NCBI RefSeq assembly: GCF_010183535.1
Contig: NC_071333.1
Span: 9,360,587-9,424,586, forward strand
From: Caenorhabditis remanei
Taxonomy: Eukaryota > Nematoda > Chromadorea > Rhabditida > Rhabditidae
Length of the DNA: 64,000 bases
Direction of reading: 5' to 3'
Positions 3,010 to 23,810 of this stretch are shown piece by piece. Numbering within the stretch: the first letter of the stretch is position 1; every line of letters begins with the position of its first letter. The notes beneath the pieces were generated by a model. The model was given only the letters and a program-made list of their open reading frames with translations, did not search any database and had not been told where the DNA came from. The translations under genes and the position numbers were made by a program.

Positions 3010-3371
3010 ATACGGCCGCACTACTCAATGTGGCCATATTATCAAAGTTTACCGCAGTTCACATCAAACAACAAAATTGTTTGAGTTCAAATCTCAATTC
3101 TATCTAGCATGAACACAGAACAGTGACCCCAAAACTGCACGCCATATGAAACGGAATAAATCCGTAAGGCATGATGAAGAGCTGAAAAATTAATTGGTAC
3201 TCACAATCAATGTGACTCCTAAGCTTCATGTGAAGAGACATTCAGTTGAATCATGAGGGAAATAACCATGAACAGATTTATGTGACCAGATTTTAAATTG
3301 TGTGACAAAACAATTCTGTAAACTTTGGTGACCAAACCACTTTTGAGAAGAAAACATGTTCAATTGTTGTT
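3010..3371 (+). repeat. Direct repeat copy 1 (contains the empty target site)
   Basis: This copy is clearly homologous to 4150-4521 in the same orientation; both contain the line GTGACTCCTAAGCTTCA and the phrase CCGTAAGGCATGATG. It runs on through GTTGTT (3366-3371) into ACTGAACTCCTGCTACGG, which matches the sequence right of the mobile element. It is therefore the unoccupied paralogue of the insertion site. Confidence 0.85.
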
Positions 3372-3790: not shown

Positions 3791-4149
3791 GATACTTCTG
3801 TTCGATCTGCCAGACTCACGGACAACTCACTGGAAAACCCCGGCCAGCAAGAAATGTTGTTTGTAACACTGAGGATGCCAAGAAGATTCAAGAGTTGAAT
3901 CAAATGGAGATCTCGGAAGGAGGCACAATTCCAATGACTGAGTTTAAGAAGGTTCAAGAGGAGGAGCTTACCAACAGATGGATGATAAATGAACTGACAG
4001 AAAAGGACGAAGAAATGATTGACAGTTCTCAGCTCACTCATCGCCGTTGCTGGAAGTGTTTTTGATTAGGCCAGACCTACCAGCCACGCCCGCACAAGAC
4101 AGTGCGGCCGTGGCTGGTTTCACACTTATATAGTTGACCCCTTTCAACT

Positions 4150-4521
4150 TTGAATCTGATACTACCGCACTACGTGGCCGTATTATCAATGTTTACCGCA
4201 ATTAACACTGAACAACAACATATCTCGAGTTCAGATCTAAATTCTATGTCGCATGAGCAAAGAACAGTGACTCCGAAATTGCACGTCATATAAAACGGAA
4301 TGAATCCGTAAGGCATGATGTCGAGCTAAACACTTAACTTTGTGCTCACGTTCAATGTGACTCCTAAGCTTCACATGAAGAGACATTCTGTTGAATCATT
4401 AGGGAAATCATCATGAACAGATCCATGCGACTACATTTTGAACTGGGTGATGATAAAAATCCCTTAAACTCTGTTGATCAAACCATTTTTGAGGGTAAAA
4501 TATATGAGCAATAAAGTTGTT
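4150..4521 (+). repeat. Direct repeat copy 2 (interrupted by the mobile element)
   Basis: Paralogue of 3010-3371. Its continuation is displaced to 23805 onward by the 19.3-kb insertion. Confidence 0.85.
4516..4521. repeat. Target-site duplication, left (GTTGTT)
   Basis: GTTGTT immediately precedes the element and is repeated in direct orientation at 23805-23810. The unoccupied paralogue at 3366-3371 has it once. Six bases is the known duplication length for Maverick/Polinton integration. Confidence 0.85.
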
Positions 4522-4689
4522 AGAGAGGTATGGGGGGGGTACTTGTAACACACACGCAACGGAGGGGAGTCGCGGCTGCCAGTGTAGGAGGAGAGGAGCA
4601 TGGAGATGCAGTGTAGGGGGTCCTCAACTGTGGAATGAATGGTGTGTAGCGGTTGTTCACTGCTTTTCAATGGGTTACCAATTATGGAT

Positions 4690-5184
4690 AAACGAAAATT
4701 TGCTGTAGAAACCAAAGTCTACGTAGGTGTGTCTTAAAAATACATGATTCTCTAATTATCGTTATCACCGATGTAAACTTTGTGAGTACATACCGCCAGT
4801 TTGTTGTTTCAAGCAGATCACTTAACATATCGCAAGGTTTCAAGTTATGGGATGTGGGAATATTTTTGCGTCTCTGAAAATTCTGCAACGGCGCACGACT
4901 ATGTTCTTACGATTATGCTCTTGCGAAGTCATGTATCTTATGCTCATGCGAAGTCATGGGAATTTCATTCCATATTCATTACGTAATTGTTCCGAGACAT
5001 TTTCTCAACCTTCGTTCGACTCCAATTGATTCAGGTTAGTGACTATCACCCTGTATACATCTACAAAAATTGGACGACGATCATTGTAATCAACTCACAA
5101 ATTGTGGCCAACGAAACAATTTACACAGGTGTATGCAAAATTGACTCCACAATTCTACAGTTCCAGAACTTCAAGAAGTAGTTA
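4690..5184 (+). other. Weak coding-like stretch, unrecognised
   Basis: Short open segments in different frames on the plus strand read protein-like, especially about 5038-5181 (Tyr-rich, then hydrophobic, ending at a TAG). I could not join them into one convincing spliced frame. It could be a decayed Maverick gene or chance. The mirror copy is 23143-23637. Confidence 0.2.
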
Positions 5185-5352
5185 TGAGGATGCTACATCA
5201 ACAATGCAACACAAGACAAACAGTCCCACTTTTTCATTTCTCATAATTTTGGAAAACACAAACCAACACCTTTGTTTCAAAGATGATGTAAGCAAAGTAC
5301 ACAAGAAGCATTGATATAGGACAAGAACAAAAATTATCAGATTCACAGATTA

Positions 5353-5624
5353 CCGTAAATACTGTATTATAACGGCACCTGTAATAGAACGGCACCTGTA
5401 TTATAACGGCACCCCATCAATACTCAGAATTCATGAATATGAATATCCCGGTGTTTTTTATTGTTTCTGATTAGAAGCAGCGTGATTGATAACGTCTTGA
5501 TCAACGAAAAGAATGCCCAAAAAAGGTTTTTTGTTTAAATTTAATGAGTTTTTAAAACCTCAAAATTTCTCTGGGAGGCAGTTGAAAAATATAACGGCAT
5601 GCCGTTATAATACAGTATTTACGG
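5353..5624. mobile_element. MITE with TA duplication, left-arm copy
   Basis: A 272-base element with about 24-base terminal inverted repeats starting CCGTAAATACTGTATTATAA, flanked by TA on both sides, as in Tc1/mariner-type insertions. Internally the phrase ACGGCACCTGTA is repeated. It sits at the 3' end of the basic Cys gene and is present identically in the mirror arm, so it was there before the palindrome formed. Confidence 0.8.
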
Positions 5625-6170
5625 TAAATTCCTTCTTGAGTGATGGGCAATCGTGCTGGAAAAACTTCATGTTTTTCTGGGCAATGAGATGAGAACGACA
5701 CACGGTGCATAGAGCGAGAGCTGAAATTTGGAAATTGAAACTTTTGAAATTTTGATACAAGTAAACTCACGAATCTGGATCATCCCATCTTCAATCTTGG
5801 CAGTTTCGCGGGTTGAGTTGAACTTCTTGCATGGAGTACACATGTGAACAATAAGTGGATCCAAACCTTTGAAAAGACGTTCTGGCATAACATTGGCTTG
5901 GTAATCAGTAGGAATAATGGACTCAGCAGCCTTCTCATACAACCACTATAAACAGATTCATTTTGAGTTTTCTACAAATTAAGGTCAACTCACAAGCTTA
6001 GCACCAGGGTTTTCACCTTCAGGGACAACGAGCTTCTTTTTCGGAATCTTCTTCTTCTTCATCGGTACATGGTTAGCCTCTTTGCCGTCTTCAGAACATG
6101 GACCTTTCTCACGTTGACCGTTCATCTTGGGCTTAGTAGGAGTACCATAATCGAGGTGAACACCAGACAT
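5605..6170 (-). CDS. Basic Cys-containing Maverick protein, unrecognised (left copy)
   Basis: The three-exon model is 6170-5994, 5945-5771 and 5720-5605, with 48- and 50-base introns, and gives 155 residues in one frame. The N-terminal third is lysine-rich (KKKKIPKKK at about residue 38-46), which suggests nucleic-acid binding or nuclear entry. Further on are a CTPC motif (about residue 95), a CTVC motif (about 122) and a C-terminal HDC, so a zinc-binding fold is possible. The final six codons and stop lie inside the MITE at 5353-5624; without the MITE the frame would have stopped within two codons. The start ATG is preceded by an acceptor-like AT-rich tract. I do not recognise the family; a virion core or DNA-binding role would be a guess. 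The mirror copy is 22157-22722. Confidence 0.6.
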
Positions 6171-7369
6171 TCTCTAAAAATAATAAGAAAATTGGGGCGA
6201 ATAATTTATTGAGGAGAGGAAGCATAACAGGGGATGCGAATAAAAGTCGGAAAAGTGAGGGTGCAAATGAGAAAGTAATGAGTACATTACTTAAATAGGT
6301 GTCTGAAAAACATGAGTCATCCACAAATAGGGACAGGTCAACTCGAAAAATTCAATACCCCGAGGTTCAGGTGAGGCATGAATAATCACCAGCAGGAGAA
6401 ATTTTTGCACGAAGTGGACGACTGAAGGACAATGAGCAAGCAAACTAAGGTTTTGGTTGAATGTGGATGGTAGGCATGGAACTCTTAGCAAAGTTGAAAA
6501 CGTAGGCTTCAGGCTTCTTTTCAGGTTTTTGAGTTGATGAGGATGTATAAAAGTACTGATCCAGACCGTTTGAAGAAACTGAACAATTTGGGGATTTTTC
6601 AACTGTCAAGTGTTTGTAATCCTCACCACTCCAACTGGATCTTGGGAACTAGGTTGATATGCATATTCTGAGCTTATTTCATCACTAACGGCAGGCTTTT
6701 GAATGCCAGTTTTCGGAATGAGTAGCTACGATAACCACGAGATCACCACACTTGGCAGAGAGATGATCGATGAGGCCGTGGAGCAAGAGGAGTTGAGAAG
6801 TAATGAAAGCCAGAAGTGGTCACACAGTTTTTCAATGTAGTCCAAGGAACTAAGTCACGAAGGAGAGTGTACGACAGTTCTCAAAAATGGATCACCAGTG
6901 CTTGATCATACTCATGCATTAGGCAGACATTTTGCCTATCGAAATAACGTTTGCTGAATTGCAAGAGCAGCAGCTAACGCGGTTGGAAACAGTGATGTCC
7001 TGAAAAATGCATTATAAATTCAAGAATCGAAGAGTTCACGGATTCCCTTTCTGTTTCTGAATGAGCGCTTAACGAACTGAACGAAGAATAGAAATATTGT
7101 GCAGAGCAATGCATCCTGTGTGATCACGAAGAGAACCTTCACAAATTTGGAAATGTGAATAATTCGGGGGTTGTTTTAGCAAGGGGAGAAAACCCCGGAA
7201 ACATGAAAAACTGAAGCATTCTCTCCAAGAACAGAAAATCAGACTATGCACATGAAAACGGTTAGAGACAGTGAAATGACACCAAACAGAACAATCGTAA
7301 CGCAGAACGATTGGTTTTGATGACTCATCAGAATTGAAAATTTGAAACCCTGAGAGTTACCTCTCGCGA
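6171..7369 (-). other. Probable decayed coding region of the Maverick (left copy)
   Basis: Read on the minus strand, this stretch has protein-like segments broken by stops and frame changes, for example about 6776-6660 and 6600-6450. No continuous or spliceable frame was found. One segment with an aromatic-rich phrase followed by FNFAKSS faintly recalls double jelly-roll capsid motifs, too weakly to name. It could be the remains of one or more late genes. The mirror copy is 20958-22156. Confidence 0.3.
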
Positions 7370-7446
7370 TGACTCATCAAGGATGACTCATCAAGGTTGA
7401 CTCATCAAGGATGACTCATCAAGGTTGACTCATCAATGATGACTCA
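7370..7446. promoter_or_regulatory. Six TGACTCA sites at exact 14-base period (left copy)
   Basis: TGACTCA starts at 7370, 7384, 7398, 7412, 7426 and 7440, exactly 14 bases apart, with spacers TCAAGGA or TCAAGGT. A seventh lies at 7321 and an inverted TGAGTCA near 7546. TGACTCA is the AP-1/bZIP core. The array is about 480-550 bases upstream of the polymerase start and between it and the decayed region. It may be a bZIP-responsive enhancer or simply a minisatellite. Confidence 0.6.
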
Positions 7447-7624
7447 CTGTTTCCAGGTTCAGCATATATTGGGATTTGCCGACAGAGCAAGGAATTCTAC
7501 ATATTCTGTGGAAACCATCCATGTTTCACTGAGGAAAGATAGAAATGAGTCATCACATAGGGACACAAACACACCCATTTTCAACAAATCTCCGATGGTT
7601 CAATGAAATAAGGAGAAATGTGAG

Positions 7625-7925
7625 CTATAAGGACAAATTATAGTGCAAACCGACAAATCCTGGGGAGTAATTGAACACAACAGACGAGAATGAAGAGGTA
7701 TATAAGACAACCAGTGCAACACCATAAACCATATCACACTTCATTCCGAAGTGAACGTCATTGATTCTTTTGACGCTTACCTTTATCATTTTCATCATCA
7801 TCGTCAATCCCTCCCTTGTCTTGATTCTCATCCTCATCAACTCCAACTTTGTCTTGATTTCCATCAACATCATCAACCACACCAATACCGTCGTTGTCTA
7901 GATTTTCAAGAAGATCTACAACCAT
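7625..7925 (-). CDS. Small acidic ORF head-to-head with the polymerase (left copy)
   Basis: A two-exon model, 7925-7781 and 7659-7625, gives 59 residues. The first exon is dominated by Asp, Glu, Asn and Gly in a repeating pattern (NQDK twice, DDDDEN near the end). The intron is about 121 bases with GTAAGC and CCCCAG borders, and the frame closes across it. Its ATG overlaps the polymerase ATG on the opposite strand, so both start inside the near-palindrome AACCATGATGGTT. It could instead be antisense 5' leader of the polymerase. No family is recognised. The mirror copy is 20402-20702. Confidence 0.35.
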
Positions 7926-10900
7926 GATGGTTGAAAACTTTGAAGAGGTAAGTGTAGAAGTTTTTGAAGTCGTCATTAACGTCAACTTTTACCAGGAACA
8001 AATTGGTGGAGCAAAGATCCGTGTTTTGGACGTTCACGAAAAGACCCCCAAGGGTCATTTTGAAGGGCGAATCATTTCACGCACCCTAGGCTTGGAACTT
8101 CCTGATTCTATGACTACTCATCCACGAGGTCCTGAAATGTTTGCTGAAACTTTGATAGAGCTCGCTCATCGCTATGACCCATTCAAAAACCCCCGTGTAA
8201 AAGTGGGTATTGTATTTGAATCAAGCGAGATTCCTGAAAGCGTTGGTTTGTGCTATCAACCGATTGACCGGATCAAGGCTGAACACATTGTTCAAACTCT
8301 TGCTCTTCAGTCACAGTCAAACAAATCTGTCTTGGAACTTGAAACTCCAAAAATCAATGCCAGATTTACATACATCAATCCACCAGTTGGTAGCGGTAAA
8401 CGGCGCTTTGACACTGGCAAAATCCTGGAGCTCACTGTATTTGAAAAACGACGAAAAACGAGCGAAACGGAGCTTGAGATGAAGAAGGAACTACCAAAAG
8501 TCAAAAAGCTCAGATCCAACATCATGCCGAACGAAGGTAAAGTTTTATGAACATTGCTGTTCAGGTTAATATCATCATCATCGACATGTTTTCAGTGATC
8601 GAAGATTGTCTGGTTCATGCATTGTACCAGGCCCTGATGTACCACAATTGGAAACACTGTAAAACACAGGAAAACAAGAACAAGTATCGAAATGCACTGA
8701 GAAAGACTTTCAAGCGACCACACATTTGCCAAGAAGTTTACGAAGCGGTGAAAGCTATGAAAGAGGTAAGATTCAGGGCAAACTCAGCAACTCAATTTCA
8801 GAAAACTTACAGAAAGCAGGTGTGTCGAAATCATCAAACTTCTGCAGGATGGATGTTGAGCGATTTCAAAACACAGTTTTTGCCGGAACACATCAACTGA
8901 TTGTATTTGTGAAGAACTCAACTATCCCCTACTACTCAGGACCATACGTGGGCGAGAAAAAACAGCTGGTCTTGTACTTGGACGATGGACACTATAGAGG
9001 TGTCAGAAGTATTTGTGCACTACTGAGGACCGAGTACTATTGCGCTCTCTGCAATAGACGCTATAAAAGTACCGTACAGCACTATAAATGTCCACTGGTT
9101 CACCGCTTATGCGGTCAACGCAATTGTCCTGTTACAGAGAGTGATCAACCAACTCGATGCAAGACATGCACCGTGTTGTTCAAATCTCAAATCTGCTATG
9201 AAAATCATATCAAAAAAGGTAGGTGCTTGGTTAGGAAGCTCCAGCTCAACATCACTTCTTTCAGGGCCAAAGAATGGTAAAAGTCGATGTGATTATACGA
9301 CAGTGTGTGAGAAATGCGAGGACGTCTACTACACGAACAAAGGCAATCCACACAAGTGCGGGCAGAAATGGTGTTATCGCTGCAACTGCCAAAGAATTAC
9401 GCCGCACAATTGCCTGATGCCCATTTCAAAGAAAAATGAGAAAAAGCTGACACGACGTCGTGTATATTTTGACATTGAGGTTTGCATATCACCAAAATTA
9501 AGTTCACACCCTAAAAATTTCAGAGCAGAGCCGACGAATCAACTGGACAGCAACACCCCGTCTTGTTCGTGGCTCTCCGTTGTTGCCCAGGCTGCGCAAT
9601 CTTCATCCCAAATGACATTGAACAAGCAAGAAACATGGTATGCTCGAAATGTGCACCTGATGGTCGATTGAAGGTCATAGAATGTATAACCATCGAGAAT
9701 CGAAATGTGGATGTTGGAAGTGAGATGACAAAGTGGCTGTTTGCTGATCACCACCAAGGAGCTGTTGTTGTGGCACACAATGCATCTGGGTAAATCTTGA
9801 TGTTGGTTATAATTACAAAGATGTGGTATATTTCAGGTACGATGGTCAATTCATTCTTGAGAATTTGATTGCCAGCAACAAAGCTTCACCCAAACTTGTC
9901 ATGGATGGAACCAAACTGATTTTCATGGAACACAACGGAGTAAAACTTCTTGACTCAATTCGATACCTGTCAATGAGTCTGAGTTCACTTGGAAAGACGT
10001 TCAACGTGGATTCCGTCAAGGGGTATGACAGTGTGAGACCAGAGTGAAGTTATTCTTGAAATTTACAGGGATTTTCCGGTGTTGTTCATCAAACCCGAAA
10101 ACTACACATATGTGGGACCGCTTCCTGAAGATTGTCACTACGCGATGGACAACAAATCGTCAGTGGTCAAAGAGCAACTTTCAACATTTTTGAGTGCACA
10201 AAGGGCTGAAGGCAAAATTTTCAACTTTGTCGAAGAGATTTTCAAGTATTGCTACAACGACGTATACATTCTGGCAACTTCAATGGGACTCTTCGAGACG
10301 GAATTTGAAAAAATCACCAACGTTTGTCTTCTGGAGGTAAGTTTCCGTAAAAATTGTACCACGCAAACACTTTCAGGAGTCTACGACTGCGGCATCAGCA
10401 GCTGCTCTTGTGTTTCGTCGAAATCATTTGGATTCAGAAAAGCCGATTGTCTTGGATGTGAAACCGTCAGTATCAATGAATGCATCAGAAGTCAGTCAAA
10501 AATATTTGGCGTGGTTCGCTTCGAAAGAGGATGTGCAGCTGAACATGTCAACCACGTATGGTGAAGAAAAGGTGAGTGAAGCACACAGGCTCACAGACGA
10601 TAATGCAAAATTTTTCAGATTGGGAGGTACCGAGTGGATGGTTTTGTACATCCATGTCCAAAATATCCTCAAGGACTCATCGTTGAGTTTTTCGTAAGTT
10701 AACACAGCTACGAGATTCCTAAATAATCACAATTGCAGGGCTGCTACTGGCATGCACACGAGTGCACTTATTCAGAAGAATCCATGATAGGTTGTGAAAG
10801 TGCCAAAGAAATTCGCCTGAAAGATGAGGAACGTTTGAATGCACTACGTGAATTTCATCCAGTCAAAGTTGTATGGGAATGTGAAGTGAAGAAGCAGCTT

Positions 10901-12716
10901 TTGAGAAATCCTGAGATGGCCGCATTTTTTCGAGACTATGAAGCTGTGGTAAGATTTCAATGCATACATCATCTGCACACGAATGAATTTAGGGACTTCT
11001 ACACTGCGACAGGGCACTGACAGGTGGCAGAACAGAGGTTTTTCGACTATACGCCAACAATGAGGGTAAAACACTACGATATGCAGACGTTGTCAGGTGA
11101 TTTCCGACTCTACTTTCATCAAAAACTATAGCATTTTCAGTCTCTATCCTACGGTGATGAAACACGATCCATTTCCTATTGGTGCACCTGAAAATGTACC
11201 TAAAGGCTCCATGGAAGTACCAATGAGGAAACCAACCGATTTGACATTTCGAGGGTTTTTGAGCTGCAAAGTTTTACCACCACGGCATCTGAAGTTACCA
11301 GTGTTGCCAATCAAGGACAACGGAAAGCTCTTGTTTGGTCTTTGTAAAAGTTTGTCACGGCAAAAGTCCACATAGAAACCTCTTCAGTTTTTCAGAATGC
11401 TGTAGAGACTCAAATCAACATGATTGTGAACACTCGGACAATGATCGTTCGTTCAGCGGAACGTTTACTACAGTGGAACTCCAGAAAGCATTGAGCTTAG
11501 GCTACGAAATTACAGAAGTGTTCCATGTGAAGACAGGTATTTGGGGGATTCATGTAATTTTATTTTTGCAGGGTGTCAAGTATGAAAACTGGGTGCAAAA
11601 CGATGAAAGTGGTCGTGGAGGACTATTCACCTCGTACATCAACCAAATGATGGAGGAAAAAATTGTGAGTGAGACTGTGCTGGGTGCCTAATTTATTCAA
11701 CCATTTTCAGTATAGCACAGGATGGCCAGCAAATGTCAGCACAGATGCTCAAAAAGACGCGTACTGCAAAGCATACTTTGACAAGGAACAAATTCATCTC
11801 ACAGACTACTCACGATTTTCGAAAAATCCAGGAAAGAGAGCTGTTGCCAAATTGATGTTGAACTCACTGGTATGGCTTCAATGTTCTCACTGTAGATAAA
11901 CCAATTTTTTCAGTGGGGCAAATTTGCACAGCGAGTGGATCGAGAAACGACTTGCATAGTGACAGACCCAACGGTTTTCTGGAACATTTTCTATGACACA
12001 ACAATCGTCATTTCGGATGTACTATGTGTGAATGATGCTCTGATCATCAAATACAGGAAACAGGCAGAAACTCTTGAGAGTTTCAAAACCAGTGCAATGC
12101 AACTTGCTGCACTCACTACGTCTTATGCTCGTCTTCGACTCTACCGCTTCATGGAGATGGTTGGTGCGGAAAACATCATGTACACAGGTATTTTCCAGTC
12201 AGTGGTCAATTTTTCGCACTCAAAATTTACAGATACGGATTCAATCATTTATGCTGTACCCGAAGGATCAAATGACCCCTTGCGTGGAGAAATCGGACCT
12301 TATCTCGGGCAGCTTACTGACGAATTGGATGGCACAATGACAGAATTTGTAACCCTAGGCCCCAAAACGTATTGCTACAAGGAGGTGTCAGCCGATGAAT
12401 CCCTGAAGGTGAGTGGTATAAACAAGTTTAATGCGATAGATTACCAAATTTTCAGGTTGTTCGAAAAGCAAAAGGCATCACAGTCAATTCCGTCGTCAAA
12501 AATCTAATGTCTTTCGATCTGATGAAAAACATGGTGGATGAAGTTCTGCAGGATGTATATCAACGAACCCGACTTCAATTTCCGCAACACGTCATGTATC
12601 GCGATGCATATCACCACGTGTACAGCAAAAAGATTTTCAAAAAATTCCAGTTCACCTTCAACAAGAGACGCATCGTCTCCGATGGATCTACACTCCCATA
12701 TGGATTTTGTGCCTGA
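7924..12716 (+). CDS. Maverick/Polinton family B DNA polymerase (left copy)
   Basis: Nineteen exons with 18 introns of 40-59 bases sum to 3963 coding bases, 1320 residues, with no stop or frame break. Exon ends fall at 7947, 8536, 8765, 9218, 9479, 9789, 10022, 10336, 10571, 10693, 10948, 11096, 11349, 11526, 11664, 11869, 12187, 12408 and 12716. The N-terminal 450 residues include two Cys-rich, zinc-finger-like stretches. Exonuclease motifs follow: FDIE (about 449), NASGYD (about 538) and YCYNDVYIL (about 670). Then come GCYWHAH (about 783), motif A DVVSLYPT (about 883), motif B KLMLNSLWG (about 1077), motif C YTDTDS (about 1173) and KTY (about 1208). All catalytic residues are present. Order and length fit Polinton protein-primed polymerases, which replicate the linear element from terminal-protein primers. 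An in-frame ATG at 7894 could lengthen the N terminus. Two introns use the weaker donors GTTTGT and GTTTGC. Confidence 0.92.
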
Positions 12717-13669
12717 AATTATGAAATTGTTGTTGCTCGCATATAAATAATTGTCATTGCTCACCTTAAACCTATAAAAAATTTTGAACCATGTACTTTT
12801 ACAAGTTTTCAGACAGAATTTGCTGTGACCAAGTTTGAGAGTGAAGTATATCTGTAGCCAAGTTTTGAGTCTGAAGTAGCCTTGATGGGACCAAATTTCA
12901 AACACAAAGTGTATTTGTGGGTAAATTTTCAAAATTCCATCATTCTGCGCAGCATTTGGAGACTGAAGTGCTTTTGCTATGATCAAATTTTCAAATTTAC
13001 ATCTTTCTGGGCCACATTTGGAGAATGAAGTGCTTTTGATATGACCAAATTTCCAAATTTACATTATTTTGTGCCCACTTTAAAGAGTGAAGCGCTTTTG
13101 ATATGAGCGAATTTCATATTCATATTCATATTCTTGTCACCAAATGTTCTGACTGAAGAGCTTCTGAAACCATGTTTTCAGACATATTTGGTTTTGTGAC
13201 TAAATTTCAGTCTGTAGTGTTACAATTTCAGAGAATGCCAATTTGTAACCGTTGCAAAAATCCACATCACGTAAAATAGTTTATGACGAAACAGCTGAGG
13301 AGCAACTCAGATAAAACTCAGTTAAGGTACAACAGTTTGCGAATCTCATTCCTGATGAAGTTGCATCAATCCTTGGAAATCCATGCTTATGTATCTCAAA
13401 AATTTACAAGCATTGCAACACAAAATAAGGAGAAATGCATTTTCTGTCCAAAAACTACAACTTTCCAGTCTCATTCCTAATGAAAGTGATGTCAGGCTCT
13501 GGGAAGTCGTGCTTATCGGGCTCAAAATATACAAAATCACAATGCAGATTAAGGAGAAATCCATTTACAGGCCAAAAAGTGGATGATTTCAACCAAAATT
13601 CTGTAAATGCAAACCATTTTGAGCCACTATAAGACCCAGAACTGGGAAATTGAGGGGTTTAAGTACACG
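12717..13669. other. Non-coding stretch with degenerate short repeats (left copy)
   Basis: No gene is seen downstream of the polymerase. At 12810-13200 a degenerate unit recurs (TTTGGAG-ATGAAGTGCTTTTG-TATGA-CAAATTT). At about 13345-13590 there are two diverged copies of a roughly 125-base unit beginning CTCATTCCT-ATGAA. The function is unknown; polymerase termination must occur here. Confidence 0.6.
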
Positions 13670-14656
13670 AGAGAAGTATGGGGGAATATGAGGCGAACGA
13701 ATTTTTGTAGTCGCTGCGTCTCTCGCTTGGAAGGGTCGGGGCTTATTCTCTGCCTCTCTCTCACTCACACACTCTCTCACTCTGTAGCCTATCCTTCGCG
13801 CCTGTCATTGATGAGGCGTCTATCCTTAATGAGGTCCTTAATGCTTATCCTTAATGAGGTGCCTATCCTTAATGTGGTACACATCCTCAGTGACGTGCGT
13901 AGTACACATACAGGCCTATCTCTACGCATATCCCACATTGGACTTTTTGGAAAATCAGTCAGAGTACCGGGTTGGGTATCGAACCTACCTTAGGCGATCG
14001 ACCGCACGTGTAACCTAGACCAAGGGGTGAGGTGATGTTTATATACCGAGCGCCCGCGCCCCCTTGAGCGCCCGGTGTGAGGAGCGAGGGGGTTGTCTCT
14101 GCGTCTCTCATGCCAAACACACCTCGAGAGACGCAGAGACAACCCCCTCGCTCCCCTCACCGGGCGCTCGAGGGGCCGCGGGCGCTCGGTATATAAACAT
14201 CACCTCACCCCTTGGTCTAGGTTACACAGTTAGCGCACCCGGTTGTGTGTTTAATCAGCGGTCGGTCGCCTCCGGCAGGTTCGACACCCAACCCGGTACT
14301 CTGACTGATTTTCCAAAAAGTCCAATGTGGGATATGCGTAGAGATAAGCTGGTATGTGTACCTCATTAAGGATACGCACGTCACTGAGGATGTGTACCTC
14401 ATTGAGGATAGGTACCTCATTAAGGATAGGCACCTCATTAAGGATAAGCACTAAGGACCTCATTAAGGATAGGCGCCTCATCAATGATAGGCGTGAAGGA
14501 TAGGCTTCAGAGTGAGAGAGTGTGTGAGTGAGAGAGACGCAGAGAATAAGCCCCGCCCCCTCCAAGCTACAAAGTGAGAGAGTGTGTGAGGTGGAGAGAC
14601 GCAGAGACATGACTACAAACTACAAAAGTTCGCCTTATATTCCCCCATACTTCTCT
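13670..14656. mobile_element. Central 987-base foldback with Maverick-like ends
   Basis: It begins AGAGAAGTATGGGGG and ends with the inverted complement. That is 14 of 15 bases like the outer Maverick terminus, and again AG...CT. Its own arms are imperfect: many substitutions and indels between 13690-14109 and 14126-14635, including a roughly 90-base excess on the right. Both arms have a CGCGTCTCT/AGAGACGC-type border, a series of CCTTAATGAGG or CCTCATTAAGG repeats, and a GC-rich GAGCGCCCG core around a 16-base loop at 14110-14125. The bases outside it are inverted copies (TACACG and CGTGTA), so no direct target duplication is visible, as expected if the outer arms were made by inverted duplication around it. 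Confidence 0.75.
14231..14288 (+). promoter_or_regulatory. tRNA-like A and B boxes (possible internal Pol III promoter)
   Basis: TAGCGCACCCGG at 14231-14242 resembles the A box, and GGTTCGACACC at 14278-14288 matches the B-box consensus GGTTCGANNCC. Spacing suits a tRNA-derived sequence. The paired arm (about 13960-14020) keeps a B-box-like complement but lacks a clear A box. No full cloverleaf was established. Confidence 0.35.
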
Positions 14657-15610
14657 CGTGTACTTAAACCCCTCAATTTCCCAGTTCTGGGTCTTATAGT
14701 GGCTCAAAATGGTTTGCATTTACAGAATTTTGGTTGAAATCATCCACTTTTTGGCCTGTAAATGGATTTCTCCTTAATCTGCATTGTGATTTTTGTATAT
14801 TTTGAGCCCGATAAGCACGACTTCCCAGAGCCTGACATCACTTTCATTAGGAATGAGACTGGAAAGTTGTAGTTTTTGGACAGAAAATGCATTTCTCCTT
14901 ATTTTGTGTTGCAATGCTTGTAAATTTTTGAGATACATAAGCATGGATTTCCAAGGATTGATGCAACTTCATCAGGAATGAGATTCGCAAACTGTTGTAC
15001 CTTAACTGAGTTTTATCTGAGTTGCTCCTCAGCTGTTTCGTCATAAACTATTTTACGTGATGTGGATTTTTGCAACGGTTACAAATTGGCATTCTCTGAA
15101 ATTGTAACACTACAGACTGAAATTTAGTCACAAAACCAAATATGTCTGAAAACATGGTTTCAGAAGCTCTTCAGTCAGAACATTTGGTGACAAGAATATG
15201 AATATGAATATGAAATTCGCTCATATCAAAAGCGCTTCACTCTTTAAAGTGGGCACAAAATAATGTAAATTTGGAAATTTGGTCATATCAAAAGCACTTC
15301 ATTCTCCAAATGTGGCCCAGAAAGATGTAAATTTGAAAATTTGATCATAGCAAAAGCACTTCAGTCTCCAAATGCTGCGCAGAATGATGGAATTTTGAAA
15401 ATTTACCCACAAATACACTTTGTGTTTGAAATTTGGTCCCATCAAGGCTACTTCAGACTCAAAACTTGGCTACAGATATACTTCACTCTCAAACTTGGTC
15501 ACAGCAAATTCTGTCTGAAAACTTGTAAAAGTACATGGTTCAAAATTTTTTATAGGTTTAAGGTGAGCAATGACAATTATTTATATGCGAGCAACAACAA
15601 TTTCATAATT
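14657..15610. other. Non-coding stretch with degenerate short repeats (right copy)
   Basis: Mirror of 12717-13669, with one extra T near 14790. No gene is seen. Confidence 0.6.
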
Positions 15611-18600
15611 TCAGGCACAAAATCCATATGGGAGTGTAGATCCATCGGAGACGATGCGTCTCTTGTTGAAGGTGAACTGGAATTTTTTGAAAATCTTTTT
15701 GCTGTACACGTGGTGATATGCATCGCGATACATGACGTGTTGCGGAAATTGAAGTCGGGTTCGTTGATATACATCCTGCAGAACTTCATCCACCATGTTT
15801 TTCATCAGATCGAAAGACATTAGATTTTTGACGACGGAATTGACTGTGATGCCTTTTGCTTTTCGAACAACCTGAAAATTTGGTAATCTATCGCATTAAA
15901 CTTGTTTATACCACTCACCTTCAGGGATTCATCGGCTGACACCTCCTTGTAGCAATACGTTTTGGGGCCTAGGGTTACAAATTCTGTCATTGTGCCATCC
16001 AATTCGTCAGTAAGCTGCCCGAGATAAGGTCCGATTTCTCCACGCAAGGGGTCATTTGATCCTTCGGGTACAGCATAAATGATTGAATCCGTATCTGTAA
16101 ATTTTGAGTGCGAAAAATTGACCACTGACTGGAAAATACCTGTGTACATGATGTTTTCCGCACCAACCATCTCCATGAAGCGGTAGAGTCGAAGACGAGC
16201 ATAAGACGTAGTGAGTGCAGCAAGTTGCATTGCACTGGTTTTGAAACTCTCAAGAGTTTCTGCCTGTTTCCTGTATTTGATGATCAGAGCATCATTCACA
16301 CATAGTACATCCGAAATGACGATTGTTGTGTCATAGAAAATGTTCCAGAAAACCGTTGGGTCTGTCACTATGCAAGTCGTTTCTCGATCCACTCGCTGTG
16401 CAAATTTGCCCCACTGAAAAAATTGGTTTATCTACAGTGAGAACATTGAAGCCATACCAGTGAGTTCAACATCAATTTGGCAACAGCTCTCTTTCCTGGA
16501 TTTTTCGAAAATCGTGAGTAGTCTGTGAGATGAATTTGTTCCTTGTCAAAGTATGCTTTGCAGTACGCGTCTTTTTGAGCATCTGTGCTGACATTTGCTG
16601 GCCATCCTGTGCTATACTGAAAATGGTTGAATAAATTAGGCACCCAGCACAGTCTCACTCACAATTTTTTCCTCCATCATTTGGTTGATGTACGAGGTGA
16701 ATAGTCCTCCACGACCACTTTCATCGTTTTGCACCCAGTTTTCATACTTGACACCCTGCAAAAATAAAATTACATGAATCCCCCAAATACCTGTCTTCAC
16801 ATGGAACACTTCTGTAATTTCGTAGCCTAAGCTCAATGCTTTCTGGAGTTCCACTGTAGTAAACGTTCCGCTGAACGAACGATCATTGTCCGAGTGTTCA
16901 CAATCATGTTGATTTGAGTCTCTACAGCATTCTGAAAAACTGAAGAGGTTTCTATGTGGACTTTTGCCGTGACAAACTTTTACAAAGACCAAACAAGAGC
17001 TTTCCGTTGTCCTTGATTGGCAACACTGGTAACTTCAGATGCCGTGGTGGTAAAACTTTGCAGCTCAAAAACCCTCGAAATGTCAAATCGGTTGGTTTCC
17101 TCATTGGTACTTCCATGGAGCCTTTAGGTACATTTTCAGGTGCACCAATAGGAAATGGATCGTGTTTCATCACCGTAGGATAGAGACTGAAAATGCTATA
17201 GTTTTTGATGAAAGTAGAGTCGGAAATCACCTGACAACGTCTGCATATCGTAGTGTTTTACCCTCATTGTTGGCGTATAGTCGAAAAACCTCTGTTCTGC
17301 CACCTGTCAGTGCCCTGTCGCAGTGTAGAAGTCCCTAAATTCATTCGTGTGCAGATGATGTATGCATTGAAATCTTACCACAGCTTCATAGTCTCGAAAA
17401 AATGCGGCCATCTCAGGATTTCTCAAAAGCTGCTTCTTCACTTCACATTCCCATACAACTTTGACTGGATGAAATTCACGTAGTGCATTCAAACGTTCCT
17501 CATCTTTCAGGCGAATTTCTTTGGCACTTTCACAACCTATCATGGATTCTTCTGAATAAGTGCACTCGTGTGCATGCCAGTAGCAGCCCTGCAATTGTGA
17601 TTATTTAGGAATCTCGTAGCTGTGTTAACTTACGAAAAACTCAACGATGAGTCCTTGAGGATATTTTGGACATGGATGTACAAAACCATCCACTCGGTAC
17701 CTCCCAATCTGAAAAATTTTGCATTATCGTCTGTGAGCCTGTGTGCTTCACTCACCTTTTCTTCACCATACGTGGTTGACATGTTCAGCTGCACATCCTC
17801 TTTCGAAGCGAACCACGCCAAATATTTTTGACTGACTTCTGATGCATTCATTGATACTGACGGTTTCACATCCAAGACAATCGGCTTTTCTGAATCCAAA
17901 TGATTTCGACGAAACACAAGAGCAGCTGCTGATGCCGCAGTCGTAGACTCCTGAAAGTGTTTGCGTGGTACAATTTTTACGGAAACTTACCTCCAGAAGA
18001 CAAACGTTGGTGATTTTTTCAAATTCCGTCTCGAAGAGTCCCATTGAAGTTGCCAGAATGTATACGTCGTTGTAGCAATACTTGAAAATCTCTTCGACAA
18101 AGTTGAAAATTTTGCCTTCAGCCCTTTGTGCACTCAAAAATGTTGAAAGTTGCTCTTTGACCACTGACGATTTGTTGTCCATCGCGTAGTGACAATCTTC
18201 AGGAAGCGGTCCCACATATGTGTAGTTTTCGGGTTTGATGAACAACACCGGAAAATCCCTGTAAATTTCAAGAATAACTTCACTCTGGTCTCACACTGTC
18301 ATACCCCTTGACGGAATCCACGTTGAACGTCTTTCCAAGTGAACTCAGACTCATTGACAGGTATCGAATTGAGTCAAGAAGTTTTACTCCGTTGTGTTCC
18401 ATGAAAATCAGTTTGGTTCCATCCATGACAAGTTTGGGTGAAGCTTTGTTGCTGGCAATCAAATTCTCAAGAATGAATTGACCATCGTACCTGAAATATA
18501 CCACATCTTTGTAATTATAACCAACATCAAGATTTACCCAGATGCATTGTGTGCCACAACAACAGCTCCTTGGTGGTGATCAGCAAACAGCCACTTTGTC

Positions 18601-20403
18601 ATCTCACTTCCAACATCCACATTTCGATTCTCGATGGTTATACATTCTATGACCTTCAATCGACCATCAGGTGCACATTTCGAGCATACCATGTTTCTTG
18701 CTTGTTCAATGTCATTTGGGATGAAGATTGCGCAGCCTGGGCAACAACGGAGAGCCACGAACAAGACGGGGTGTTGCTGTCCAGTTGATTCGTCGGCTCT
18801 GCTCTGAAATTTTTAGGGTGTGAACTTAATTTTGGTGATATGCAAACCTCAATGTCAAAATATACACGACGTCGTGTCAGCTTTTTCTCATTTTTCTTTG
18901 AAATGGGCATCAGGCAATTGTGCGGCGTAATTCTTTGGCAGTTGCAGCGATAACACCATTTCTGCCCGCACTTGTGTGGATTGCCTTTGTTCGTGTAGTA
19001 GACGTCCTCGCATTTCTCACACACTGTCGTATAATCACATCGACTTTTACCATTCTTTGGCCCTGAAAGAAGTGATGTTGAGCTGGAGCTTCCTAACCAA
19101 GCACCTACCTTTTTTGATATGATTTTCATAGCAGATTTGAGATTTGAACAACACGGTGCATGTCTTGCATCGAGTTGGTTGATCACTCTCTGTAACAGGA
19201 CAATTGCGTTGACCGCATAAGCGGTGAACCAGTGGACATTTATAGTGCTGTACGGTACTTTTATAGCGTCTATTGCAGAGAGCGCAATAGTACTCGGTCC
19301 TCAGTAGTGCACAAATACTTCTGACACCTCTATAGTGTCCATCGTCCAAGTACAAGACCAGCTGTTTTTTCTCGCCCACGTATGGTCCTGAGTAGTAGGG
19401 GATAGTTGAGTTCTTCACAAATACAATCAGTTGATGTGTTCCGGCAAAAACTGTGTTTTGAAATCGCTCAACATCCATCCTGCAGAAGTTTGATGATTTC
19501 GACACACCTGCTTTCTGTAAGTTTTCTGAAATTGAGTTGCTGAGTTTGCCCTGAATCTTACCTCTTTCATAGCTTTCACCGCTTCGTAAACTTCTTGGCA
19601 AATGTGTGGTCGCTTGAAAGTCTTTCTCAGTGCATTTCGATACTTGTTCTTGTTTTCCTGTGTTTTACAGTGTTTCCAATTGTGGTACATCAGGGCCTGG
19701 TACAATGCATGAACCAGACAATCTTCGATCACTGAAAACATGTCGATGATGATGATATTAACCTGAACAGCAATGTTCATAAAACTTTACCTTCGTTCGG
19801 CATGATGTTGGATCTGAGCTTTTTGACTTTTGGTAGTTCCTTCTTCATCTCAAGCTCCGTTTCGCTCGTTTTTCGTCGTTTTTCAAATACAGTGAGCTCC
19901 AGGATTTTGCCAGTGTCAAAGCGCCGTTTACCGCTACCAACTGGTGGATTGATGTATGTAAATCTGGCATTGATTTTTGGAGTTTCAAGTTCCAAGACAG
20001 ATTTGTTTGACTGTGACTGAAGAGCAAGAGTTTGAACAATGTGTTCAGCCTTGATCCGGTCAATCGGTTGATAGCACAAACCAACGCTTTCAGGAATCTC
20101 GCTTGATTCAAATACAATACCCACTTTTACACGGGGGTTTTTGAATGGGTCATAGCGATGAGCGAGCTCTATCAAAGTTTCAGCAAACATTTCAGGACCT
20201 CGTGGATGAGTAGTCATAGAATCAGGAAGTTCCAAGCCTAGGGTGCGTGAAATGATTCGCCCTTCAAAATGACCCTTGGGGGTCTTTTCGTGAACGTCCA
20301 AAACACGGATCTTTGCTCCACCAATTTGTTCCTGGTAAAAGTTGACGTTAATGACGACTTCAAAAACTTCTACACTTACCTCTTCAAAGTTTTCAACCAT
20401 CAT
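15611..20403 (-). CDS. Maverick/Polinton family B DNA polymerase (right copy)
   Basis: Exact mirror of the gene at 7924-12716: every exon ORF translates identically, so 19 exons and 1320 residues are preserved with all exonuclease and polymerase motifs. The two genes converge tail to tail on the central foldback, about 2.9 kb apart. Transcription running through the centre from either side would yield self-complementary RNA. With two identical copies, neither shows decay relative to the other. Confidence 0.92.
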
Positions 20404-20702
20404 GGTTGTAGATCTTCTTGAAAATCTAGACAACGACGGTATTGGTGTGGTTGATGATGTTGATGGAAATCAAGACAAAGTTGGAGTTGATGAGGATGAG
20501 AATCAAGACAAGGGAGGGATTGACGATGATGATGAAAATGATAAAGGTAAGCGTCAAAAGAATCAATGACGTTCACTTCGGAATGAAGTGTGATATGGTT
20601 TATGGTGTTGCACTGGTTGTCTTATATACCTCTTCATTCTCGTCTGTTGTGTTCAATTACTCCCCAGGATTTGTCGGTTTGCACTATAATTTGTCCTTAT
20701 AG
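20402..20702 (+). CDS. Small acidic ORF head-to-head with the polymerase (right copy)
   Basis: Mirror of 7625-7925; exons 20402-20546 and 20668-20702, 59 residues, rich in Asp, Asn and Gly. The start overlaps the polymerase start on the minus strand. Weakly supported, because it could be leader or antisense sequence. Confidence 0.35.
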
Positions 20703-20880
20703 CTCACATTTCTCCTTATTTCATTGAACCATCGGAGATTTGTTGAAAATGGGTGTGTTTGTGTCCCTATGTGATGACTCATTTCTATCTTTCCTCAGTG
20801 AAACATGGATGGTTTCCACAGAATATGTAGAATTCCTTGCTCTGTCGGCAAATCCCAATATATGCTGAACCTGGAAACAG

Positions 20881-20957
20881 TGAGTCATCATTGATGAGTC
20901 AACCTTGATGAGTCATCCTTGATGAGTCAACCTTGATGAGTCATCCTTGATGAGTCA
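20881..20957. promoter_or_regulatory. Six TGAGTCA sites at 14-base period (right copy)
   Basis: Mirror of 7370-7446, lying about 480-550 bases upstream of the right polymerase copy. Confidence 0.6.
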
Positions 20958-22156
20958 TCGCGAGAGGTAACTCTCAGGGTTTCAAATTTTCAATTCTGAT
21001 GAGTCATCAAAACCAATCGTTCTGCGTTACGATTGTTCTGTTTGGTGTCATTTCACTGTCTCTAACCGTTTTCATGTGCATAGTCTGATTTTCTGTTCTT
21101 GGAGAGAATGCTTCAGTTTTTCATGTTTCCGGGGTTTTCTCCCCTTGCTAAAACAACCCCCGAATTATTCACATTTCCAAATTTGTGAAGGTTCTCTTCG
21201 TGATCACACAGGATGCATTGCTCTGCACAATATTTCTATTCTTCGTTCAGTTCGTTAAGCGCTCATTCAGAAACAGAAAGGGAATCCGTGAACTCTTCGA
21301 TTCTTGAATTTATAATGCATTTTTCAGGACATCACTGTTTCCAACCGCGTTAGCTGCTGCTCTTGCAATTCAGCAAACGTTATTTCGATAGGCAAAATGT
21401 CTGCCTAATGCATGAGTATGATCAAGCACTGGTGATCCATTTTTGAGAACTGTCGTACACTCTCCTTCGTGACTTAGTTCCTTGGACTACATTGAAAAAC
21501 TGTGTGACCACTTCTGGCTTTCATTACTTCTCAACTCCTCTTGCTCCACGGCCTCATCGATCATCTCTCTGCCAAGTGTGGTGATCTCGTGGTTATCGTA
21601 GCTACTCATTCCGAAAACTGGCATTCAAAAGCCTGCCGTTAGTGATGAAATAAGCTCAGAATATGCATATCAACCTAGTTCCCAAGATCCAGTTGGAGTG
21701 GTGAGGATTACAAACACTTGACAGTTGAAAAATCCCCAAATTGTTCAGTTTCTTCAAACGGTCTGGATCAGTACTTTTATACATCCTCATCAACTCAAAA
21801 ACCTGAAAAGAAGCCTGAAGCCTACGTTTTCAACTTTGCTAAGAGTTCCATGCCTACCATCCACATTCAACCAAAACCTTAGTTTGCTTGCTCATTGTCC
21901 TTCAGTCGTCCACTTCGTGCAAAAATTTCTCCTGCTGGTGATTATTCATGCCTCACCTGAACCTCGGGGTATTGAATTTTTCGAGTTGACCTGTCCCTAT
22001 TTGTGGATGACTCATGTTTTTCAGACACCTATTTAAGTAATGTACTCATTACTTTCTCATTTGCACCCTCACTTTTCCGACTTTTATTCGCATCCCCTGT
22101 TATGCTTCCTCTCCTCAATAAATTATTCGCCCCAATTTTCTTATTATTTTTAGAGA
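20958..22156 (+). other. Probable decayed coding region of the Maverick (right copy)
   Basis: Mirror of 6171-7369. Open segments at about 21076-21258 and 21725-22036 do not connect into a gene. Another frame at about 21726-21881 and one at about 21500-21640 read more protein-like but end in stops. Confidence 0.3.
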
Positions 22157-22722
22157 ATGTCTGGTGTTCACCTCGATTATGGTACTCCTACTAAGCCCAA
22201 GATGAACGGTCAACGTGAGAAAGGTCCATGTTCTGAAGACGGCAAAGAGGCTAACCATGTACCGATGAAGAAGAAGAAGATTCCGAAAAAGAAGCTCGTT
22301 GTCCCTGAAGGTGAAAACCCTGGTGCTAAGCTTGTGAGTTGACCTTAATTTGTAGAAAACTCAAAATGAATCTGTTTATAGTGGTTGTATGAGAAGGCTG
22401 CTGAGTCCATTATTCCTACTGATTACCAAGCCAATGTTATGCCAGAACGTCTTTTCAAAGGTTTGGATCCACTTATTGTTCACATGTGTACTCCATGCAA
22501 GAAGTTCAACTCAACCCGCGAAACTGCCAAGATTGAAGATGGGATGATCCAGATTCGTGAGTTTACTTGTATCAAAATTTCAAAAGTTTCAATTTCCAAA
22601 TTTCAGCTCTCGCTCTATGCACCGTGTGTCGTTCTCATCTCATTGCCCAGAAAAACATGAAGTTTTTCCAGCACGATTGCCCATCACTCAAGAAGGAATT
22701 TACCGTAAATACTGTATTATAA
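22157..22722 (+). CDS. Basic Cys-containing Maverick protein, unrecognised (right copy)
   Basis: Mirror of 5605-6170; exons 22157-22333, 22382-22556 and 22607-22722, 155 residues. The stop codon at 22720-22722 lies within the MITE terminal repeat. The lysine-rich N terminus and CTPC, CTVC and HDC motifs are identical to the left copy. Confidence 0.6.
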
Positions 22723-22974
22723 CGGCATGCCGTTATATTTTTCAACTGCCTCCCAGAGAAATTTTGAGGTTTTAAAAACTCATTAAATTTAAACAAAAAA
22801 CCTTTTTTGGGCATTCTTTTCGTTGATCAAGACGTTATCAATCACGCTGCTTCTAATCAGAAACAATAAAAAACACCGGGATATTCATATTCATGAATTC
22901 TGAGTATTGATGGGGTGCCGTTATAATACAGGTGCCGTTCTATTACAGGTGCCGTTATAATACAGTATTTACGG
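22703..22974. mobile_element. MITE with TA duplication, right-arm copy
   Basis: Mirror of 5353-5624, with the same terminal repeats and TA flanks. Confidence 0.8.
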
Positions 22975-23142
22975 TAATCTGTGAATCTGATAATTTTTGT
23001 TCTTGTCCTATATCAATGCTTCTTGTGTACTTTGCTTACATCATCTTTGAAACAAAGGTGTTGGTTTGTGTTTTCCAAAATTATGAGAAATGAAAAAGTG
23101 GGACTGTTTGTCTTGTGTTGCATTGTTGATGTAGCATCCTCA

Positions 23143-23637
23143 TAACTACTTCTTGAAGTTCTGGAACTGTAGAATTGTGGAGTCAATTTTGCATACACCT
23201 GTGTAAATTGTTTCGTTGGCCACAATTTGTGAGTTGATTACAATGATCGTCGTCCAATTTTTGTAGATGTATACAGGGTGATAGTCACTAACCTGAATCA
23301 ATTGGAGTCGAACGAAGGTTGAGAAAATGTCTCGGAACAATTACGTAATGAATATGGAATGAAATTCCCATGACTTCGCATGAGCATAAGATACATGACT
23401 TCGCAAGAGCATAATCGTAAGAACATAGTCGTGCGCCGTTGCAGAATTTTCAGAGACGCAAAAATATTCCCACATCCCATAACTTGAAACCTTGCGATAT
23501 GTTAAGTGATCTGCTTGAAACAACAAACTGGCGGTATGTACTCACAAAGTTTACATCGGTGATAACGATAATTAGAGAATCATGTATTTTTAAGACACAC
23601 CTACGTAGACTTTGGTTTCTACAGCAAATTTTCGTTT
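23143..23637 (-). other. Weak coding-like stretch, unrecognised (right copy)
   Basis: Mirror of 4690-5184; no convincing spliced frame. Confidence 0.2.
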
Positions 23638-23804
23638 ATCCATAATTGGTAACCCATTGAAAAGCAGTGAACAACCGCTACACACCATTCATTCCACAGT
23701 TGAGGACCCCCTACACTGCATCTCCATGCTCCTCTCCTCCTACACTGGCAGCCGCGACTCCCCTCCGTTGCGTGTGTGTTACAAGTACCCCCCCATACCT
23801 CTCT

Positions 23805-23810
23805 GTTGTT
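23805..23810. repeat. Target-site duplication, right (GTTGTT)
   Basis: Direct copy of 4516-4521. It is followed by CATAACCTGAACTCCTGCTA, which matches the continuation of the unoccupied paralogue at 3366 onward. Confidence 0.85.

What the first reader, a model, noticed from the sequence alone, without database searches (positions are those of the whole stretch)
4522..23804. A Maverick/Polinton that is one giant palindrome with two polymerase genes
Seen: a 19.3-kb element with AG...CT ends and a 6-base duplication whose arms (9.17 kb each) are inverted copies differing by only two homopolymer indels. Known: Mavericks are usually 15-20 kb with terminal repeats of hundreds of bases and one copy each of polymerase, integrase, ATPase, protease and capsid genes. 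Here essentially the whole element is terminal repeat, and each gene found is present twice. I infer a head-to-head dimer of the polymerase half of a Maverick, with the other half lost. I know of no described class of this kind.
Basis: partly seen in the sequence, partly recalled or inferred. Interest (0 to 1): 0.95.

Follow-up and report, generated by a model that had tools for sequence, protein, structure and literature searches.

The report
Giant mirror-image Mavericks with hairpin hinges
In a nematode genome the polymerase half of a virus-like Maverick transposon lies twice, mirror-wise, at 24 chromosomal places (near-perfect 18-22 kb palindromes where the arms were read in full), likely because a hairpin end folded back and primed its own copy, which would make the unseen replication cycle of these elements testable.

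Summary
The window element (4522-23804, TSD GTTGTT) has 9,168-bp arms with no substitution and two 1-bp indels. Of 20 palindromes whose borders I read, 15 have a perfect 6-bp TSD, all different. A capped genome scan found no integrase inside the 19 pairs tested, but integrase beside 16 of 38 single polymerases. A canonical Maverick here has polymerase, integrase, ATPase and a 36-bp terminal repeat. Palindromic polymerases lie scattered among integrase-bearing ones. The window's hinge is an older imperfect palindrome with Maverick-type tips; arm identity starts at those tips. A one-armed relative ends at its hinge tip with its own TSD. A 277-bp insert, missing from listed relatives, sits in both window arms. 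Best reading: a terminal hairpin folds back and primes a copy of the polymerase half; the palindrome then moves as a unit with borrowed integrase. Fold-back priming and borrowed integrase are inferred. Some assembly errors among these copies are told in the report.

The parts
4516..4521 (.). target-site duplication, left copy GTTGTT
   Evidence: sequence
4522..13689 (+). left arm, 9,168 bp, starts AGAGAGGTATGGGGG
5351..5627 (.). 277-bp repeat insert with inverted-repeat ends in the left arm; absent from the listed family members
   Evidence: identical in both arms; relatives run from query 830 to 1106-1111
5620..6170 (-). accessory gene (three exons, small CxxC protein); its 3' end runs into the insert
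   Evidence: (C6:9366209-9366756); also in canonical Mavericks
7858..12716 (+). polymerase-B gene with short introns (start uncertain)
12923..13114 (.). 62-bp tandem repeats, left arm
13670..14656 (.). hinge: imperfect palindrome with Maverick-type tips AGAGAAGTATGGGGG facing inward
14637..23804 (-). right arm, inverted copy of the left arm
15213..15404 (.). 62-bp tandem repeats, right arm
15611..20469 (-). second polymerase-B gene, mirror of 7858-12716 (coordinates by mirror arithmetic)
   Evidence: mirror relation; right-arm ORFs
22157..22707 (+). second accessory gene, mirror of 5620-6170
   Evidence: C6:9382743-9383165 and 9383192-9383290
22700..22976 (.). mirror copy of the 277-bp insert
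23805..23810 (.). target-site duplication, right copy GTTGTT
   Evidence: sequence

Best explanation
This is a palindromic Maverick, the polymerase half of a Maverick present twice, head to head around a hinge, which likely arose when the hinge, a hairpin-forming terminal palindrome, folded back so that its 3' end primed a copy of the whole arm. Shown: near-perfect arms, a hinge with Maverick-type tips in several lineages, identity starting at those tips in the window, insertions with own 6-bp TSDs at many loci, no integrase match inside, and one one-armed form ending at the hinge tip with its own TSD. Inferred: (1) a Maverick lost the integrase side and gained a short palindromic Maverick-tipped hinge as its end; (2) during extrachromosomal replication the hinge formed a terminal hairpin and self-priming made a double-length inverted dimer, as in the turnaround step of parvovirus replication; (3) both ends of the dimer are now the same polymerase-side terminus, so it could be replicated by its own polymerase and inserted by an integrase supplied by intact Mavericks; (4) arms stay alike because one arm is copied onto the other from time to time, while the hinge, being the loop, is not evened out.
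For: Recurrence: of 76 polymerase copies built from 115 of 131 PF03175 hits, 38 lie in 19 convergent pairs under 25 kb apart, 0 in divergent pairs; integrase (PF00665) within 8 kb at 16 of 38 single copies, between the members of 0 of 19 pairs (both scans capped). Control, 150 integrase hits: 3 convergent and 5 divergent pairs. 6 of 6 pairs fetched in full are palindromes; with the window, 20 mismatches and 8 gaps in 66,948 aligned arm bases. TSD 6/6, all different, at 15 of 20 palindromes read. Canonical Mavericks: TSD at 3 of 3, exact terminal repeat 36 bp; the one whose middle was read (C5:18.6M) has polymerase, integrase and a P-loop ATPase and no inverted repeat over 150 bp there. The hinge's right half matches the end of canonical elements away from the accessory gene at 89 of 90 bases. 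Hinge 88-100% alike between listed copies but 77% between its own halves; arms 98% (d, f) or 93% (c, e, outer part) alike between elements, 99.8-100% within one. The 277-bp insert is in both window arms and in no listed relative. One-armed C2:14877329-14888374 ends at the hinge tip with TSD TTCGTT. Palindromic label in the polymerase tree: 7 changes, 6 forced by starred branches.
Against: No reads or extrachromosomal DNA seen. The second one-armed element (C4:20.27M) has no matching TSD. Hinges of a, b and o show no Maverick tip that I trust, so the hinge model does not cover every case. In n, o and b the arm leaves the nearest integrase-bearing relative soon after the polymerase gene; b and n keep only weak, broken similarity (73-89%) towards the hinge, so the step from canonical to palindrome is not reconstructed. 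Copies i, j and l share a 1-bp arm asymmetry, so at least some rounds copy the whole palindrome without re-making an arm (i and l, however, share a left flank). j differs by about 8% between its arms next to the hinge; the central 2.2 kb of C6:4.85M, hinge included, is 88.7%. In the tree the label is more clustered than chance (7 changes against 10.6 in shuffles, as low in 10 of 500), near-copies included; some branches are long, and changes may be losses. Supply of integrase in trans is untested.
Confidence: 0.65

Rival explanations
1. In-place conversion: an ordinary Maverick inserted first; later the broken integrase half was rebuilt in the chromosome by copying the polymerase half (break-induced copying or gene conversion from hinge to outer tip), keeping the old TSD.
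For: TSDs and unlike flanks fit equally; arm homogenisation is what gene conversion does.
Against: Palindromes with a homologous hinge lie at different sites with different TSDs: window, C2:3.22M, C4:13.67M, C1:15.59M, C5:13.47M (hinges 88-94% like the window's) and d with f (146 identical bases of about 161 around the hinge in the same strand; TSDs). The canonical terminal repeat is only 36 bp, a short target for re-joining.
Confidence: 0.19
2. Assembly artefact: fold-back reads or mis-joins made false palindromes.
For: The assembly has such errors: contig C40 mirrors its own flank 50 of 50 bases; copy i shares its left flank with l; k runs into a gap; C122:306k has unlike arms.
Against: The window and 14 other palindromes have unlike flanks with a perfect TSD next to the same polymerase-side tip on both sides; single polymerase copies with an integrase exist in the same assembly; the middle of a canonical element read here is not palindromic; the hinge halves differ by about 20%.
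Confidence: 0.05
3. Ordinary long terminal repeats: these are Mavericks whose terminal repeats simply grew until little unique sequence was left.
For: A palindrome with a short spacer is formally an element with very long terminal repeats.
Against: The three canonical elements whose tips I read have 36 bp; no intermediate length was seen among the 7 palindromes and 3 canonical elements read; identity in the window begins at the hinge tips; lineages apart in the tree all keep the polymerase half (whose rows were chosen by polymerase hits).
Confidence: 0.08

Closest known systems
Maverick/Polinton (polintovirus)
   Same: AG...CT ends, 6-bp TSD, protein-primed-type polymerase B, in an animal genome (ends and TSD as given for vertebrate Mavericks in PMC8097293, two passages seen)
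   Different: no integrase match, no other core Maverick gene recognised, every gene present twice in convergent arms
Parvovirus rolling-hairpin replication, dimer replicative form
   Same: terminal imperfect palindrome whose fold-back would prime an inverted dimer (recalled; abstract starts of PMC11575299 and PMC8195378 in the listing)
   Different: here the dimer itself sits in chromosomes as an inserted element; no Rep/NS1-type nickase among the Pfam matches of the arm pieces
Snap-back defective genomes of DNA and RNA viruses (for example adenovirus; recalled, not found in the searches)
   Same: one end and its replication origin duplicated head to head, other half lost, would need a helper
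   Different: keeps the polymerase gene; sits in a germline genome as insertions with TSDs
Fold-back and palindromic miniature transposons (PAL-type elements of C. elegans, recalled)
   Same: nearly complete palindromes with TSD, moved in trans
   Different: about 20 kb, with polymerase genes
Bidnaviridae (PMC4061559, abstract start in the listing)
   Same: polinton-type polymerase combined with a parvovirus-like genome
   Different: a virus; no sequence link tested here

Membership tests
Maverick/Polinton | 6-bp target-site duplication | tested here: met
   GTTGTT; 15 of 20 palindromes read in all
Maverick/Polinton | AG...CT termini | tested here: met
   AGAGAGG...CCTCTCT
Maverick/Polinton | protein-primed-type family B polymerase | tested here: met
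   PF03175 in 4 of 48 separate arm pieces, best E 1.7e-9; PHROG polymerase in 3. That the type is protein-primed rests on the family name.
Maverick/Polinton | retrovirus-type integrase | tested here: not met
   no rve match in arm pieces nor inside the element in the genome scan (150 of 232 candidates scored); positive control: rve found in canonical C5:18.6M by the same piece-wise method
Maverick/Polinton | packaging ATPase, protease, capsid genes | tested here: inconclusive
   no such Pfam match in arm pieces (only weak hits to unrelated families), but short exons and missing capsid models limit the test
Maverick/Polinton | terminal inverted repeats with a unique middle | tested here: not met
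   arms 9,168 bp with a 947-bp spacer that is itself an imperfect palindrome
Parvovirus-like rolling-hairpin element | terminal hairpin-forming palindrome at a genome end | tested here: met
   hinge palindrome is the end of one-armed C2:14.88M, with TSD; only 1 of 2 such elements has the TSD, and the window form has it in the centre
Parvovirus-like rolling-hairpin element | Rep/NS1 initiator nuclease | tested here: inconclusive
   no such match in the pieces scanned, but introns split genes
Defective-interfering snap-back genome | depends on a helper and interferes with it | not testable with these tools
   needs animals or cells

The most novel reading that the evidence does not exclude
Mavericks have a hairpin-dimer stage in their life cycle: a terminal palindrome folds back, primes an inverted copy of the polymerase half, and the resulting mirror-image dimer is a stable parasitic life form of its own that has arisen repeatedly, keeps its arms identical by being re-copied, and lives on the integrase of intact Mavericks.
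Probability: 0.5. Interest if true: 0.93.

Novelty: new variant of a known kind. Interest (0 to 1): 0.87.

Why it matters
Maverick replication is inferred from gene content; none of the passages I saw describes an intermediate. A class of whole-element palindromes with Maverick-tipped hinges, a one-armed form ending in such a hinge, and copying from arm to arm looks like the footprint of replication through a hairpin. It predicts definite molecules (10-kb snap-back DNA, 20-kb inverted dimers) that can be looked for in a laboratory nematode, would link polinton-type and parvovirus-type replication, and gives a natural system for 20-kb palindromes in animal chromosomes.

Tried and rejected
Decayed polymerase: rejected, frames change at short intron-like gaps. 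Pre-existing palindrome into which the hinge jumped: rejected, the hinge has no direct repeat beside it (TACACG against CGTGTA). One origin of all palindromes: not supported, though long branches and possible losses limit the tree. Hinge loop contiguous with the nearest canonical relative: tested for o, n and b; o has no similarity past the polymerase gene, n has 73-83% over about 160 bp at the hinge, b has collinear fragments of 80-89%. Viral-contig scans with polymerase pieces and with the tip: no relatives; the one tip match, in a contig that looks phage-like by eye, was taken as chance. PDB search with two polymerase pieces: nothing. Flanking 1351-aa ORF: no homologue among 7987 scored. 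Print: the searches list no paper on palindromic Mavericks by title or abstract start; several lists were capped (for example 20 of 44, 12 of 71), and preprints and most subscription journals are not held.
Full report
What was checked. The window element is a palindrome with arms 4522-13689 and 14637-23804 (9,168 bp each, no substitution, two 1-bp homopolymer indels), GTTGTT directly repeated outside AGAGAGG...CCTCTCT ends, and unlike flanks. From 13690 inward identity drops at once to about 80%: the hinge 13670-14656 is an older imperfect palindrome whose two tips read AGAGAAGTATGGGGG inward, one base off the outer tip AGAGAGGTATGGGGG; with at most one mismatch the outer motif occurs in the window, both strands, only at these four places.

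Genes. Separate pieces of 7858-12716 match polymerase B (PF03175 in 4 of 48 arm pieces, best E 1.7e-9; PHROG polymerase in 3). The frame changes fit short introns, most of 36-60 bases with GT...CAG edges; an open exon chain exists in the real sequence and in 0 of 100 dinucleotide shuffles (a few introns that the script chose are longer, up to 110, and may be wrong). A small divergent gene at 5.6-6.2 kb matches 7 proteins, five from C. remanei and two from C. nigoni; its first exon is identical to P0005 at the aligned positions, one lysine shorter. The genome scan finds this gene in palindromes and also in the canonical elements at C5:18.6M, C4:9.88M and C5:22.1M, so it is an accessory gene of the group. 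No integrase, ATPase, protease or capsid match in 48 + 89 arm pieces (two overlapping sets), only weak hits to unrelated families. In 60 of 88 listed ORF pieces from arms of a, c, d and e: polymerase, zinc-finger matches and one weak helicase hit.

Host. G000 (130.5 Mb, 186 contigs) has contigs of 19,935,723, 25,790,997 and 21,501,900 bases, the lengths given for C. remanei GCK72 proteins. That GCK72 is strain PX506 is recalled.

A recurrent class. PF03175 gave 131 hits (91 of 322 candidates scored, so a lower bound). From 115 of them I built 76 polymerase copies: 38 in 19 convergent pairs within 25 kb, none divergent; 16 of 38 singles have an integrase hit within 8 kb, no pair has one between its members (one hit lies 2.5 kb outside the end of q); the same pairing rule on 150 integrase hits gives 3 convergent and 5 divergent pairs (the integrase scan scored 150 of 232 candidates). 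The window family, whose polymerase is split by introns, was not in that list and adds C6 (window), C2:3.22M, C4:13.67M, C1:15.59M, C5:13.47M and C6:4.85M. With the 18 pairs on C1-C6 this makes 24 chromosomal loci, among them i and k, whose flanks are badly assembled. I aligned the arms in full for 7 (window and a-f): 20 mismatches and 8 gap openings in 66,948 aligned bases, 17.9-21.8 kb in length, and sampled two more (n, o: 855 and 987 bp at 100%). Both ends of 11 more are placed by DNA hits (18.5-22.3 kb). The rest stand on paired hits alone. Further candidates: C5:21.37M, C3:13.39M, C3:15.51M, C4:20.23M, C5:14.55M.

Borders. I read both borders of 20 palindromes. 15 have a 6/6 TSD, all different: window GTTGTT, a TACATC, c GATGAC, d TGAATG, e ATCGGA, f AATATA (read by eye; for c the aligner's edge lay one base, for f sixteen bases outside the AG tip), C2:3.22M CAGTTT, C4:13.67M CCCCAG, C1:15.59M GATAAC, C5:13.47M CTGCGA, m AACAAT, q AACCAA, l TGAGAT, j CTCCAT, h GTCATT (best of the motif positions tried). 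Five do not: b (no AG end), C122:306k (arms of two subfamilies), C40 (flank mirrored 50 of 50, a fold-back contig), k (gap), i (left flank the same as that of l). The last three show what assembly errors look like here.

Canonical Mavericks. C5:18.61M, C4:9.88M and C5:22.13M are 19.4-20.0 kb long, have TSDs at 3 of 3 and an exact terminal repeat of 36 bp. I read the middle of one, C5:18.62M (8.9 kb): polymerase B, integrase core, chromodomain and a P-loop ATPase match in separate pieces, and no inverted repeat over 150 bp. For the other two the genes were not read.

Arms evolve together, the hinge does not. Elements d and f are 98% alike, c and e 93.4% in the outer arm pieces (88.7% mean in the inner pieces, repeats included), c and d 82.6%, yet aligned stretches within each are 99.8-100%. 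The hinge is 88-100% alike between eight places of the window family (C16 and C122 are the same locus by their flanks, C40 is a faulty contig) but 77% between its own halves. The d and f hinges agree at 146 of about 161 bases in one strand and 117 in the other, arm edges included. A 277-bp repeat (5351-5627; eleven other places at 97-99%) sits identically in both window arms, while the listed relatives run from query 830 to 1106-1111 (40 of 613 candidates scored): one insertion, then copied to the other arm. By contrast b has a 2.6-kb insert in one arm only. Copies i, j and l share a 1-bp difference between their arms (3958 and 3959 bp), so whole palindromes seem to be copied as such too; i and l share a flank, which weakens this.

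Hinge and one-armed form. Hinges of the window family, c, d, e and f carry inward-facing Maverick-type tips; n has AGTAGTG tips; a, b and o show none that I trust. The window hinge's right half matches the canonical end that lies away from the accessory gene (89 of 90 bases). At C2:14877329-14888374 one arm plus a full hinge is inserted alone, from the hinge tip AGTAGTATGG to the outer tip, with TTCGTT on both sides; the first 1,771 bases from the hinge tip are 100% identical to one side of palindrome j, whose other side there is 92%, so either recombination or an assembly error has touched j. A second one-armed element, C4:20266707-20277742, lacks a matching TSD.

Origins. In a tree of 33 polymerase pieces (13 palindromic, 11 integrase-bearing, 9 single) the palindromic label needs 7 changes, at least 6 by starred branches; shuffled labels need 10.6 on average, as low in 10 of 500, so the label is clustered as well. 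o, n, b and s sit beside integrase-bearing rows; a is a long branch, and changes may include losses. Similarity of o and n to those relatives runs just past the polymerase domain hits and then stops, but for 73-83% over about 160 bp at the hinge of n; b goes on in collinear fragments. In b, C5:21.37M and C3:13.39M fragments 77-89% alike to the integrase-gene region remain.

Mechanism. The polymerase half is kept, the integrase half lost, the fold lies in several lineages at a Maverick-tipped palindrome, identity in the window starts at its tips, and such a hinge can serve as an element end. A terminal hairpin that self-primes explains these together; integrase would have to come from intact Mavericks. 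Priming, extrachromosomal stage and trans-integration are inferred. Zero substitutions in 9,168 bp means the last arm copying was recent; at a mutation rate recalled for C. elegans (about 3e-9 per base and generation) that is at most some tens of thousands of generations.

Known work. PMC8097293 (two passages): vertebrate Mavericks, 6-bp TSDs, AG end motifs, 134 intact elements. PMC6431247, PMC10120064, PMC12368964, PMC10461856 (passages): nothing on palindromic Mavericks in the passages shown.

Counts were re-read, arm identity is given as 99.8-100%, the claim about canonical gene content now rests on one element read, and the statement that C1:15.59M and C4:13.67M share the same hinge was withdrawn (their arms score alike, their hinges are 89% and 94% like the window's); confidence was lowered by 0.01.

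Noticed in passing
G000 contig C40 (76263-121438): Unplaced contig that mirrors its own flank 50 of 50 bases: a fold-back assembly error; the same 6 bases AACACG stand left of C40's element and right of the one on contig C108, which may hold the true right flank.
   Followed up: partly
G000:C2:1156706-1178411, C4:5186589-5208289, C4:23723550-23745255: Near-identical palindromes with flank problems in the assembly (i and l share a left flank; k ends in N).
   Followed up: partly
window 5620-6170 and P0004-P0010: Small CxxC protein gene, divergent from the polymerase, multi-copy in C. remanei and present in C. nigoni; no convincing Pfam match; a common Maverick accessory gene of unknown role.
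   Followed up: partly
window 13970-14290: Stretch in the hinge that looks tRNA-derived by eye (GGTTCGA box); ARAGORN found no tRNA.
   Followed up: no
window 2995-3347 and 4144-4493: 81% direct repeat in the left flank of the element.
   Followed up: no
window 32081-36247: Long open frame (1,388 aa stop to stop) without homologues in the protein search.
   Followed up: partly
C40 and C108 against window arms: Mosaic family members on unplaced contigs: polymerase half 100% identical to the window over 4.2-4.7 kb, outer half only 82-91%, so halves may be exchanged between palindromes.
   Followed up: partly
L111 (C5:18.62M): The canonical Maverick's integrase piece lies beside a chromodomain match.
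   Followed up: no
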